From Sinomicrobium soli (lineage in GTDB: Bacteria > Bacteroidota > Bacteroidia > Flavobacteriales > Flavobacteriaceae): a stretch of DNA of 64,000 nucleotides. Positions 7,594 through 9,723 of this stretch are shown here, one piece after another. Position 1 is the stretch's first letter; every line of letters begins with the position of its first letter. A program made the translations under genes and the position numbers. The notes below the pieces were generated by a model. The model was given only the letters and a program-made list of their open reading frames with translations, made no database searches and was not told the origin of the DNA. The stretch spans positions 209,157-273,156 of the forward strand of contig NZ_QLNV01000007.1 in assembly GCF_003285545.1 (NCBI RefSeq), read 5' to 3'.

Positions 7594-8403
7594 ATGTCAT
7601 GTAACAATTATGAACTATTAAAAAGAGGCGACCCTGCCGCTTTGGAACAAATTTATGCGCAATACAACAGAATTATCTTTTGGATTGGTAATCGAATGCT
7701 AAACGATCATTTTGCAGTAGAATCCCTGGTCCAGGATACTTTTTTAAAGTTATGGGTGCTCAGGGACAGGATAGAAAGGCCTGAGCATATGCTCCATTTC
7801 TTAAAGTTTGTAATGAAAAGGGAATGTATTTCATATTACACCAAACCCAGGAACAGGTTTTTCAGGAAAATCAATTCGTTGGAGAACTACGACAACTACC
7901 AGGACTATATGGCGGGGTACGACCCGGCAAGCGTGTCTGAAAACCTGAAAGACCAAGAGTCGGAGCAAAAGGCCTTCGACCGGGTCAAAAGCATTCTGCC
8001 CCTGCTCCATGCGGAGAGAAGACACCTGATTGAGCTCTGCTTAAAATACGGCTTTCAGTATAAAGCCATTGCCGAAGTGATGGGAAAGGGGATCACCGAA
8101 ACCAGTAATGAGGTCAAGCGGGCTATCCGGGACATTAGAACCATCGTCCATCAAGGGGGCAAGCTTAAAACGGAACAAAAGTCTGCCGTTGAAAGGCAGG
8201 CCCCGGCTGTGATGACCGAAGAACAGGAAAGGGTATTGGAACTCAGATGCGACAAGAAGTACTCCTTTGCTTCAATTGCCGAAACGCTGAACCTGTCCCA
8301 AAAGGAAGTTCACAAAGAATTCGTAACCGCGTATAAGCTCATGCAGGAGAAGCATAATCTACAAAGGGCTGAGCATGCCGGTGTTGAACGGATTACAGCC
8401 TGA
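7594..8403 (+). CDS. ECF sigma factor with duplicated sigma-4-like domain
   Basis: This 269-residue protein is longer than the usual ECF length of about 170-200. Sigma-2 spans about 13-80 (ALEQIYAQYNRIIFWIGNRM and VQDTFLKLW). A first sigma-4 spans about 130-184 (LIELCLKYGFQYKAIAEVMG). After a linker, a second sigma-4-like HTH spans about 207-252 (EEQERVLELRCDKKYSFASI, then AETLNLSQKEVHKEF). ECF factors direct RNA polymerase to chosen promoters; no anti-sigma gene is adjacent. The next genes are a scaffold-like RNA element and a nuclease-dead Cas12f-like protein. Nuclease-dead Cas12f proteins linked to ECF sigma factors in Bacteroidota have recently been reported (from memory) to recruit polymerase by RNA guidance, and this gene fits that arrangement. 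The extra C-terminal domain may be the interaction surface (inference). Confidence 0.85.
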   Translation: MSCNNYELLKRGDPAALEQIYAQYNRIIFWIGNRMLNDHFAVESLVQDTFLKLWVLRDRIERPEHMLHFLKFVMKRECISYYTKPRNRFFRKINSLENYDNYQDYMAGYDPASVSENLKDQESEQKAFDRVKSILPLLHAERRHLIELCLKYGFQYKAIAEVMGKGITETSNEVKRAIRDIRTIVHQGGKLKTEQKSAVERQAPAVMTEEQERVLELRCDKKYSFASIAETLNLSQKEVHKEFVTAYKLMQEKHNLQRAEHAGVERITA

Positions 8404-8412
8404 AAATTTAAT

Positions 8413-8499
8413 TTGAGGGTGCTTGTACACCTGTATGGTGAGGTCAACGACACTCATTAAATGCGAACAGCATATACAAAGCAGTAAAAGCAAGGTAAC
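8413..8499 (+). ncRNA. Candidate guide RNA 1: 67-nt scaffold plus putative guide
   Basis: The conserved scaffold is 8413-8479, starting 9 nt after the sigma factor stop. It is 59/67 identical to 9630-9696 with no gaps. Predicted stems are CACC/GGTG (8428-8431 with 8437-8440), TGAG/CTCA (8439-8442 with 8453-8456, extendable by GTC/GAC) and ATGC/GCAT (8461-8464 with 8470-8473). All eight differences between the copies fall in loops or spacers. From 8480 the sequence (AGCAGTAAAAGCAAGGTAAC) is unrelated to copy 2, as expected for a guide. No clear terminator follows; the Cas12f-like start is at 8524. The guide's 3' limit is a guess. Confidence 0.65.
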
Positions 8500-8523
8500 A
8501 ATATCCTTTAGAATCCGCCCAGT

Positions 8524-9621
8524 ATGGAAAAATCAACACTCAAGCTCACAAAAAAGATCCAGGTATTGATAGACCTGCCTACCAAGGAAGAAAAAAAAGA
8601 GGCCATAGGTAAGCTATATCAATGGCAGAACAGATGCTTTAAGGCAGCTAACCTTATTGTTTCCCATTTGTACGTACAGGAAATGATCAAGGATTTCTTT
8701 TATCTCTCCGAAGGGATCAGGTATAAACTGGCCGATGAAAAAAAAGACGAAGACGGCATCCTGCAATGTTCCCGGATCAATACGACCTATCGTATGATGT
8801 CGGACCGCTTTAAAGGGGAAATCCCTATGGATATACTGTCCTGTTTAAATACATCCTTAATTGCTACTTTTAATAAAAACAAAACGGAATATTGGAAAGG
8901 CCTGCGTTCACTGGAAAATTTTAAACGAGACATGGCGTTTCCATTTGGTTCGCGTTGTATGAGCCGGTTATCCTATACTACCAATAAAAAGGCCTTTTGC
9001 TTCCGTCTATTTTCAATACCGTTTAAGACGTATTTAGGAAAAGATTTTACCGACAAACGAAAACTATTGGAGCGTCTGGAAAAAGGGAACATCAAGTTGT
9101 GTACTTCGCATATTCAACTCAAAGACGGAAAAATATTCTGGCTGGCGGTATTTGAAATTGAAAAGGAAAAGCATCGCTTAATGCCGGAAAAAATAGCCGA
9201 AGCATCGCTCTCTCTTGAATATCCCATTGTAGTAAAAACAGATAAAACCAGGCTTACCATTGGTACCCGGGAGGAGTTTCTGTACAGAAGGCTGGCCATA
9301 CAGGCCGCCCGAAAGAGGGCCCAGACCGCTGCTACCTATTGCAAAGCGGGAAAAGGACGTAAGCGAAAACTCAAAGCGGTGGACAAATTCCGTAATACAG
9401 AAACTAATTATATATCCCAGCGTATCCATGTATACAGCAGAAAACTCATTGATTTCTGTATCAAACACCAGGCAGGAACACTTATTTTATTAAACCAGGA
9501 AGACAAGATCGGAATAGCCAAAGAGGAAGAATTCGTATTGCGGAACTGGAGTTATTATGAGCTCATGACGAAAATAAGGTATAAAGCAGAAAAAGCAGGT
9601 ATTGAACTTATTGTAGGTTAA
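8524..9621 (+). CDS. Nuclease-dead, C-terminally truncated Cas12f-family (TnpB-related) RNA-guided DNA-binding protein
   Basis: The 365-residue product can be aligned with Cas12f from about residue 220 to the end. There is a basic bridge-helix-like stretch at 254-295 (YRRLAIQAARKRAQ, KGRKRKLKAVDKF), then FCIKHQAGTLILLN (311-324) and NWSYYELMTKIRYKAEKAGI (341-360), which match the Cas12f pattern. The catalytic residues are missing: in my alignment the RuvC-I Asp is Ser228 and the RuvC-II Glu is Leu323. The protein stops at ELIVG, just before where Cas12f/TnpB continue into the CxxC zinc finger and RuvC-III Asp. It should therefore bind guide RNA and DNA without cutting. It lies 120 bp downstream of the sigma gene and is flanked by two scaffold-like RNAs. 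A degenerate TnpB is the alternative, but the conserved context argues for function. Confidence 0.85.
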   Translation: MEKSTLKLTKKIQVLIDLPTKEEKKEAIGKLYQWQNRCFKAANLIVSHLYVQEMIKDFFYLSEGIRYKLADEKKDEDGILQCSRINTTYRMMSDRFKGEIPMDILSCLNTSLIATFNKNKTEYWKGLRSLENFKRDMAFPFGSRCMSRLSYTTNKKAFCFRLFSIPFKTYLGKDFTDKRKLLERLEKGNIKLCTSHIQLKDGKIFWLAVFEIEKEKHRLMPEKIAEASLSLEYPIVVKTDKTRLTIGTREEFLYRRLAIQAARKRAQTAATYCKAGKGRKRKLKAVDKFRNTETNYISQRIHVYSRKLIDFCIKHQAGTLILLNQEDKIGIAKEEEFVLRNWSYYELMTKIRYKAEKAGIELIVG

Positions 9622-9629
9622 GAGGTTTA

Positions 9630-9716
9630 TTGAGGGTGCTTGTACACCCGTAAGGTGAGGTCAATAACACTCACTAAATGCATATAGCATATACAACCAA
9701 ATTTTTCGGGTTTCCC
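9630..9716 (+). ncRNA. Candidate guide RNA 2: 67-nt scaffold plus 20-nt guide before a T7 run
   Basis: The scaffold is 9630-9696, beginning 8 nt after the Cas12f-like stop codon, and keeps the same stems as copy 1 with changed loops. The next 20 nt (CCAAATTTTTCGGGTTTCCC, 9697-9716) differ completely from copy 1 and are followed by seven T residues (9717-9723), a likely RNA 3' end. This gives a natural 20-nt guide. Both copies follow a stop codon by 8-9 nt, so the RNAs may be cut from the 3' part of the two mRNAs. Confidence 0.7.
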
Positions 9717-9723
9717 TTTTTTT
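9717..9723 (+). terminator. T-run, possible end of guide RNA 2
   Basis: TTTTTTT follows CGGGTTTCCC, whose GGG/CCC could form only a three-pair stem. It is weak as a classical intrinsic terminator, but it sits exactly 20 nt after the scaffold. Confidence 0.4.

What the first reader, a model, noticed from the sequence alone, without database searches (positions are those of the whole stretch)
7594..9723. Candidate RNA-guided transcription system: ECF sigma factor + nuclease-dead Cas12f-like protein + two guide-RNA-like elements
The locus is ordered sigma factor, scaffold 1, Cas12f-like protein, scaffold 2, all on one strand and with little spacing. The Cas12f-like protein has lost all RuvC catalytic features but keeps the parts needed for RNA and DNA binding. 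The sigma factor has an extra C-terminal HTH-like domain. From memory, dCas12f-sigma pairs in Bacteroidota have recently been reported to recruit RNA polymerase to guide-defined sites instead of -35/-10 promoters; this locus fits that description. The two scaffolds, each placed right after a stop codon, are an unusual arrangement.
Basis: partly seen in the sequence, partly recalled or inferred. Interest (0 to 1): 0.96.

Follow-up and report, generated by a model that had tools for sequence, protein, structure and literature searches.

The report
RNA-guided transcription operon inside a cascade
This stretch of a flavobacterial genome carries a sigma factor gene and a nuclease-dead Cas12f gene with two guide-RNA scaffolds, close relatives of a system that likely switches genes on at guide-chosen sites, and the guide sequences of two sister operons in the same genome match a hairpin element just upstream of it, so it would sit inside a chain of RNA-guided switches.

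Summary
7594-9723 holds an ECF sigma gene, a dCas12f gene and two 67-nt scaffolds that are 88% identical. The kind is known: the dCas12f is 78% identical to chain A of PDB 9n9m (dCas12f-gRNA-DNA, released 2025-12-24), and the sigma factor matches chain C of 9n9q.

Upstream of the window's sigma gene lies a covarying structured element (7321-7500; no Rfam match) with a divergent XRE-type gene and a TAnnTTTG box. Sister guides (GCGTGGGCTCTCTTA) match it 14/15 behind a 5'-G at 7427, and match 6 of 7 genomic element copies with at most 1 mismatch of 15. Copies precede SusC-type, ECF sigma and HEPN genes. In 63 of 79 named relatives at least one guide is of this type. The window's own guides are not.

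Scaffold 1 sits between sigma and dCas12f (0 of 79 relatives), ends ACAAA not ACAAC, and probably derives from a duplicated dCas12f 3' end; scaffold 2 looks intact.

Likely reading: a second-tier RNA-guided transcription operon, switched on by sister guides, with its own targets unproven (one lead upstream of a SusC-type gene). Activation, cascade and leader bypass are inferred.

The parts
6949..7278 (-). divergent XRE/Cro-type HTH gene (109 aa)
   Evidence: Pfam HTH_3 E 2.5e-8; a divergent ORF starts 95-165 nt upstream of the model start in 54 of 63 element copies (the window's starts at 75) against 11.4% of random positions
7314..7321 (+). TATTTTTG, match to the flavobacterial sigma-A -7 box TAnnTTTG (a second match at 7294)
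   Evidence: consensus from passages of PMC9723704
7321..7500 (+). structured leader element (model R1 match 7354-7500; extra 5' hairpin from 7321)
   Evidence: R1 156 bits (the window is one of its 45 source sequences); fold z -4.5, 1 of 200 shuffles as good; covariation; no Rfam match
7427..7442 (+). 5'-G TAM (7427) and 15-nt target-like site GCGTGGGCTCTGTTA for the guides of the two sister loci, 166 nt before the sigma ATG
   Evidence: 14/15 match, G at -1
7482..7498 (+). 3' tail GAGTGCCACGCC plus T-run; alternative partner of 7427-7437 (terminator-like switch)
   Evidence: 98.6% of cells paired over 45 sequences (shuffled mean 97.2), 3 pairs with double changes; coordinates
7594..8403 (+). 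ECF sigma factor with duplicated region 4 (269 aa)
   Evidence: PDB 9n9q chain C, E 2.9e-108
8365..8403 (+). last 12 codons and stop of sigma, RAEHAGVERITA, resembling the dCas12f C-terminus KAEKAGIELIVG
   Evidence: 6/12 identical in the same register to stop and scaffold; 32 of 100,000 permutations
8413..8480 (+). scaffold 1 (ends ACAAA); in a 143-nt insertion (8365-8507) relative to the sister locus L096
8481..8500 (+). guide-1 position GCAGTAAAAGCAAGGTAACA, no T-run; doubtful guide
8524..9621 (+). nuclease-dead Cas12f (365 aa)
   Evidence: PDB 9n9c/9n9m/9n9o/9n9q, E 3.1e-194; 78% identity to 9n9m_A
9630..9697 (+). scaffold 2 (ends ACAAC)
   Evidence: 95.7 bits with R2, best of the genome
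9698..9716 (+). guide 2, CAAATTTTTCGGGTTTCCC
9717..9723 (+). T-run after guide 2 (likely transcript end)
   Evidence: sequence

Best explanation
The window holds an intact sigma factor gene and a dCas12f gene with two guide-RNA scaffolds, which likely work as an RNA-guided transcription activator of the kind solved in PDB 9n9c-9n9q, and the operon would itself be switched on by guide RNAs from two sister operons whose 15-nt guide sequence matches a hairpin element 166 nt upstream of the sigma gene. Shown by sequence: protein and scaffold homology, loss of the RuvC residues, the element and its covariation, the guide-target matches with a 5'-G, and the divergent HTH gene. Inferred: a TAnnTTTG promoter makes a leader RNA whose 3' tail can pair with the target-bearing strand ahead of a T-run and so end transcription early. 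A sister guide in dCas12f-sigma binds the DNA at 7427-7442, and RNA polymerase starts downstream of that site, past the switch, so that sigma-dCas12f is made. The sister guides would hit the SusC-type, ECF sigma and HEPN copies too. The window's own complex, perhaps sharing the guide pool, would act at other sites through guide 2; scaffold 1 is probably a by-product of duplication.
For: Solved relatives: dCas12f E 3.1e-194 and sigma E 2.9e-108; titles dCas12f-gRNA and dCas12f-gRNA-DNA partial R-loop. Sister loci at C41:117560 (80%) and C43:66880 (79%). Their guides match 7 of 7 element copies with at most 2 of 13 mismatches, and 6 of 7 with at most 1 of 15, all behind G at the same element position. 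63 of 79 named loci have such a guide (70 of 103 guides; 60 of 79 and 66 of 103 by the strict rule, for which 1.1% of random guides pass); among the 39 loci with both an element and such a guide, 32 match their own element within 3 of 13. Element: 30 pairs, 98.6% of cells paired, 16 pairs with double changes, covariation score 0.370 against 0.140 shuffled, 0 of 500 shuffles reach these. In the family sample 7 of 7 dCas12f genomes have the element against 33 of 149 overall (P 1.5e-5; not corrected for kinship).
Against: The element occurs in 26 of 149 sampled genomes without a dCas12f at E 1e-60, so its conservation has another cause, and the G before the target is also a structural position (A1 columns 80/148). 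16 of 79 loci lack element-type guides (19 by the strict rule), among them Allomuricauda taeanensis (L006), and in its genome the first 18 nt of that guide have no other match with 2 or fewer mismatches. G101 has three guides with no element match (best 5 of 13), both guides of G032 are 4 of 13 off, and those of G145 are 3 to 6 of 13 off. Seven of 39 loci miss their own element by 4 of 13. The count of pair types did not beat its shuffles (49 of 500), and the alternative helix is only modestly supported. The window's guides have no strong target. No RNA or binding data exist here.
Confidence: 0.6

Rival explanations
1. A plain stand-alone dCas12f-sigma system: both scaffolds make working guides that recruit RNA polymerase to their own targets, and the upstream element is an unrelated leader.
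For: Scaffold 2 is the best-scoring scaffold in the genome and ends ACAAC with a T-run. Guide 1 has a one-mismatch match (15 of 16 including the 5'-G) at C14:3708, 484 nt upstream of a SusC-type gene behind another structured leader and a divergent HTH-like ORF. Guide 2 has an exact 14-nt match at C42:193655, 77 nt before a lipoprotein-like ORF by the count, but with C, not G, before it.
Against: No other match with 2 or fewer mismatches in 20 for either guide; the 2-mismatch seed hits are not far above the reversed-pattern control (10 versus 3, and 9 versus 5, self included). Scaffold 1 has the only ACAAA end.
Confidence: 0.25
2. The guide resemblance to the element works at the RNA level: GGCGTGGGCTC of the guide pairs with the tail GAGTTCCACGCC of the leader RNA and tips the terminator switch, rather than binding DNA.
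For: The tail is complementary to the element-type guide core, and this pairing is conserved within the element.
Against: The G position fits the reported TAM (recalled). The relative was solved on DNA.
Confidence: 0.12
3. The locus is a decaying copy: the protein pair is expressed but its guides are dead, and it survives only as a protein partner for guides made by the sister loci.
For: Neither own guide has a convincing target; scaffold 1 looks like a duplication by-product; sister scaffolds are alike enough to be shared (C43 copy in A3).
Against: Both ORFs are intact, and scaffold 2 is the best-scoring copy in the genome.
Confidence: 0.2
4. A non-expressed TnpB relic beside an unrelated sigma gene.
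For: NCBIfam guided_TnpB matches below its cut-off (60.8 of 100 bits).
Against: All 80 named loci have a sigma match on the same strand as dCas12f and 79 a scaffold behind it; the best structural matches are the solved dCas12f entries; the ORF is intact.
Confidence: 0.02

Closest known systems
dCas12f-sigmaE RNA-guided transcription (PDB 9n9c, 9n9m, 9n9o, 9n9q; the preprints on it are recalled, not read)
   Same: Full-length dCas12f (78% to 9n9m_A), matching sigma partner, scaffold 3' of dCas12f, RuvC residues lost
   Different: A second scaffold between sigma and dCas12f; own guides do not match the element upstream of the operon; two sister operons in the genome whose guides do
Cas12f nucleases (PDB 9nzo, 8hr5, 8j12)
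   Different: No RuvC Asp/Glu, no C-terminal zinc-ribbon part, no repeat array in 6900-11500
TldR, nuclease-dead TnpB repressors (PMC13418256, passages read)
   Same: RuvC-inactivated, RNA-guided, controls transcription
   Different: TldR represses and is phage-encoded in that paper; here the protein is paired with a sigma factor
Structured 5' leaders and attenuators of flavobacteria (PMC9723704, passages read)
   Same: Structured RNA after a TAnnTTTG promoter with a terminator-like alternative pairing
   Different: No Rfam family matches; its apical strand recurs as a guide in dCas12f systems

Membership tests
dCas12f-sigmaE RNA-guided transcription systems | Cas12f homolog alignable over full length to the solved dCas12f | tested here: met
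   1-365 to 1-365, E 3.1e-194; 78% identity
dCas12f-sigmaE RNA-guided transcription systems | RuvC catalytic residues lost | tested here: met
   Asp to S228, Glu to L323, C-terminal part absent
dCas12f-sigmaE RNA-guided transcription systems | adjacent ECF sigma factor of the partner type | tested here: met
   9n9q_C, E 2.9e-108 over 4-258
dCas12f-sigmaE RNA-guided transcription systems | guide-RNA scaffold 3' of dCas12f | tested here: met
   9630-9697, 95.7 bits, as in 79 named relatives
dCas12f-sigmaE RNA-guided transcription systems | own guide matches a genomic site with 5'-G TAM upstream of a gene | tested here: inconclusive
   only a one-mismatch lead for guide 1 and a lead with C in place of G for guide 2
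dCas12f-sigmaE RNA-guided transcription systems | complex recruits RNA polymerase and starts transcription | not testable with these tools
   needs RNA and ChIP data
Type V-F CRISPR-Cas nuclease | intact RuvC active site | tested here: not met
Type V-F CRISPR-Cas nuclease | repeat-spacer array beside the effector (6900-11500 examined) | tested here: not met
   the only direct repeat over 26 nt is the scaffold pair, 1217 nt apart
TldR (nuclease-dead TnpB repressor) | represses its target | not testable with these tools
   the adjacent sigma gene speaks for activation; guided_TnpB 60.8 of 100 bits
Known Rfam RNA family (for the 7321-7500 element) | match to any Rfam 15 model | tested here: not met
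   none at gathering or at E up to 1

The most novel reading that the evidence does not exclude
Flavobacterial dCas12f-sigma systems use a family of switch-like leader RNAs as their address book: the guide copies the apical strand of the leader, so the complex starts transcription inside the leader, past its terminator, at all copies at once (SusC-type genes, ECF sigma and the sigma-dCas12f operons themselves). Operons such as the window's, whose guides have diverged, form a second tier, giving a natural RNA-guided transcription cascade.
Probability: 0.4. Interest if true: 0.85.

Novelty: new member of a known kind. Interest (0 to 1): 0.6.

Why it matters
Natural targets are what makes an RNA-guided activator understandable. 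Here most guides in 79 named relatives point to one family of structured leaders that also sits in front of SusC-type and sigma genes. That gives a concrete regulon and a testable reason for the leader: guided initiation could skip the terminator. A genome with three operons, two with the common guide and one without, is a ready-made test of a cascade. I could not read the primary papers on dCas12f-sigmaE, so I cannot say how much of the targeting part is already in print.

Tried and rejected
Rejected: (1) guide 2 as a deletion remnant of the ancestral guide; the alignments did not support it. (2) Guide-1 region as a second dCas12f 3' relic: 12 of 1000 shuffles reach the score, one of two tests tried, so only a hint. 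The nucleotide likeness of the pre-scaffold-1 stretch alone is weak (55 of 1000); the protein-level test is the stronger one (32 of 100,000). (3) A known RNA family for the element. (4) Fetching the primary papers by DOI (not held); seven paper searches (at most 20 rows listed each) showed no paper on dCas12f-sigma transcription and none that I recognised as describing the element; only listings and abstract starts were seen, plus passages of PMC13418256 and PMC9723704. (5) Long match for the Allomuricauda taeanensis guide in its own genome: none beyond itself and two 3-mismatch sites. (6) My first rule for a divergent ORF (within 260 nt, 55 aa or more) is met by 62 of 63 element copies but also by 52% of random positions, so I use the narrower 95-165 nt window (54 of 63 against 11.4%).

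Rows dropped: 11 of 56 element hits as duplicates before A1; scaffold hits under 50 bits, duplicates and those without a clear end before the 89 distinct scaffolds, of which A3 used 49; L041 gave no scaffold (its contig ends just behind dCas12f), hence 79 of 80 named loci; R2 was run on the 7 dCas12f genomes and on 14 of the 26 element-only genomes; L036 (a stop codon in the stretch given) and L053 (left out untested) were dropped from the protein alignment A6. Only the best 80 of 120 related loci were returned. The output was cut.
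Full report
1. Observation. The two ORFs (7594-8403, 8524-9621) are intact and on one strand. Two scaffolds of 67 nt, 88% identical, lie at 8413 and 9630. A covariance model of 49 scaffolds (16 pairs, 5 with double changes) scores them 79.7 and 95.7 bits and finds four scaffolds in the genome. Rfam has no match.

2. Family. The 365-aa protein aligns end to end with chain A of PDB 9n9c, named 'Nuclease-deactivated Cas12f' (E 3.1e-194). 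A model built on 22 sequences (mean pLDDT 70.7) finds 9n9m and 9n9c first, titled dCas12f-gRNA-DNA (partial R-loop) and dCas12f-gRNA, released 2025-12-24. The sigma factor aligns with 9n9q chain C 'RpoE' over 4-258 (E 2.9e-108), so its extra C-terminal HTH (Pfam region 4 twice) belongs to the family. The RuvC Asp and Glu are replaced (S228, L323) and the C-terminal part is missing. The finding is therefore a member of a known kind. The preprints on dCas12f-sigmaE transcription with a minimal 5'-G TAM are recalled; they are not held.

3. Sister loci. The own genome holds two more dCas12f genes, 80% and 79% identical, each with a sigma gene and one scaffold. Both sister guides begin GCGTGGGCTCTCTTA. 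Named relatives: of 80 loci (the best of 120), all have a sigma match on the same strand and 79 a scaffold, downstream of dCas12f in each; 17 of 79 have two or more. In 63 of 79 at least one guide matches GCGTGGGCTC within 3 of 10 or carries CGTGGG near its start (70 of 103 guides). By the first condition alone it is 60 of 79 loci and 66 of 103 guides, and 1.1% of random guides pass. The loci without include L006, Allomuricauda taeanensis.

4. The element. GCGTGGGCTCTGTTA lies at 7428-7442, behind G7427, 166 nt before the sigma ATG. It is the apical 3' strand of a structured element. On 45 sequences the 30-pair structure is formed in 98.6% of cells (shuffled mean 87.0), 16 pairs have changes on both sides, the covariation score is 0.370 (shuffled 0.140); none of 500 shuffles reaches these, while the count of further pair types does not stand out (49 of 500); slid versions fall to 30-40% paired. 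The single-sequence fold has z -4.5, 1 of 200 shuffles as good. An 11-pair alternative helix joins the same apical strand (7427-7437) to the tail (7482-7493) just before a T-run. It is also 98.6% paired, but the columns are so conserved that shuffles reach 97.2% on average; 3 pairs have double changes (17 of 500 shuffles reach that), 8 cells (0 of 500), and further pair types do not stand out (128 of 500). Two mutually exclusive conserved pairings ending in a T-run suggest a terminator switch; this is inference.

5. Distribution of the element. The genome has seven copies: the three sigma-dCas12f operons, a SusC-type gene (C22, Pfam Plug), an ECF sigma gene (C10), a HEPN gene (C1) and C42. Of 63 copies examined, 54 have a divergent ORF starting 95-165 nt upstream of the model start, against 11.4% of 3540 random positions; the window's own HTH gene starts at 75. 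55 of 63 have TAnnTTTG 36-44 nt before the model start (counted). Of ten divergent proteins scanned, seven had an HTH_3 or HTH_26 match at E below 0.01. In 149 genomes of the family 33 have the element and 7 have dCas12f (E 1e-60), all seven with the element (one-sided P 1.5e-5, not corrected for kinship). Scaffolds were found in those seven and in 1 of 14 element-only genomes tested. The same-genus genome G095 has five element copies, no dCas12f and no scaffold. So the element stands on its own and dCas12f systems appear to address it.

6. Guide against element. In the own genome both sister guides match all seven copies at the same position behind G: at most 2 of 13 mismatches; over 15 nt 0, 0, 1, 1, 1, 1 and 4. 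The window's guides do not (3 to 6 of 13). In the other six dCas12f genomes of the family sample: G126 (1 and 1 of 13), G064 (1, element on another contig) and G135 (1) agree; G032 (4 and 4), G101 (5, 5, 5) and G145 (3 to 6) do not or only partly. In named loci with an element and an element-type guide, 32 of 39 match their own element within 3 of 13.

7. Scaffold 1. Relative to the sister locus L096 the window has a 143-nt insertion between sigma and dCas12f. It begins exactly with the last 12 codons of sigma, RAEHAGVERITA, which match the dCas12f end KAEKAGIELIVG in 6 of 12 positions in the same register to stop codon and scaffold (32 of 100,000 permutations; no other 12-mer of sigma exceeds 4). 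Tandem guides in L043 and L049 likewise come with copies of the dCas12f 3' end (84-92% over 64-77 nt), and L010, L012 and L035 with 17-nt pieces; the other twelve multi-scaffold loci show none or only 11-nt matches. So scaffold 1 most likely arose by copying the dCas12f 3' end with its scaffold. Its ACAAA end (86 of 89 scaffolds end ACAAC) and the missing T-run make it doubtful as a guide.

8. Targets of the window's guides. None strong. Lead for guide 1: C14:3708, 15 of 16 including the 5'-G, intergenic by the ORF rule, 484 nt before a SusC-type gene that has its own strongly structured leader (z -6.8) and a divergent HTH-like ORF (judged by eye). With a cut-off of 50 aa, short ORFs overlap the site. 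About 0.1 such match is expected by chance genome-wide (own arithmetic); two were found besides the scaffold itself, the other inside an ORF. Lead for guide 2: exact 14-nt match at C42:193655 with C before it. Both need experiments.

9. Mechanism. Shown: parts, homology, matches. Inferred: transcription activation (from the solved relatives), the cascade, leader bypass. Confidence in the family is about 0.95; in the cascade with bypass about 0.4; the combined statement is scored 0.6.

Noticed in passing
L171:1030-1300 (own genome C14): A second, different structured leader (fold z -6.8) upstream of a SusC-type gene with a divergent HTH-like ORF: the HTH-leader-SusC layout is perhaps not limited to one RNA family.
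   Followed up: partly
L147 (G095 C26): Two HTH-gene/element modules in tandem about 640 nt apart, in a same-genus genome without dCas12f.
   Followed up: no
L148-L153 (G020): Six element copies, each followed by a small protein of 79-122 aa; the two tested have no Pfam match.
   Followed up: partly
L157, L202 (G145); L203 (G022): Four tandem guide RNAs with different guides plus a lone scaffold on another contig in G145; a lone scaffold in G022, which has no close dCas12f.
   Followed up: no
L043:7109-7537, L049:7102-7525: Tandem guide RNAs separated by copies of the dCas12f 3' end, a likely route by which guide sets grow.
   Followed up: partly
L140:7278-8306 (own genome C1): A HEPN-domain gene sits downstream of the best-scoring element copy, with a perfect 15-nt match to the sister guides.
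   Followed up: partly
window 2889-6815: 1308-aa putative surface protein with several near-identical repeats of about 90 aa (PDCT..SP.DGAT motif).
   Followed up: no
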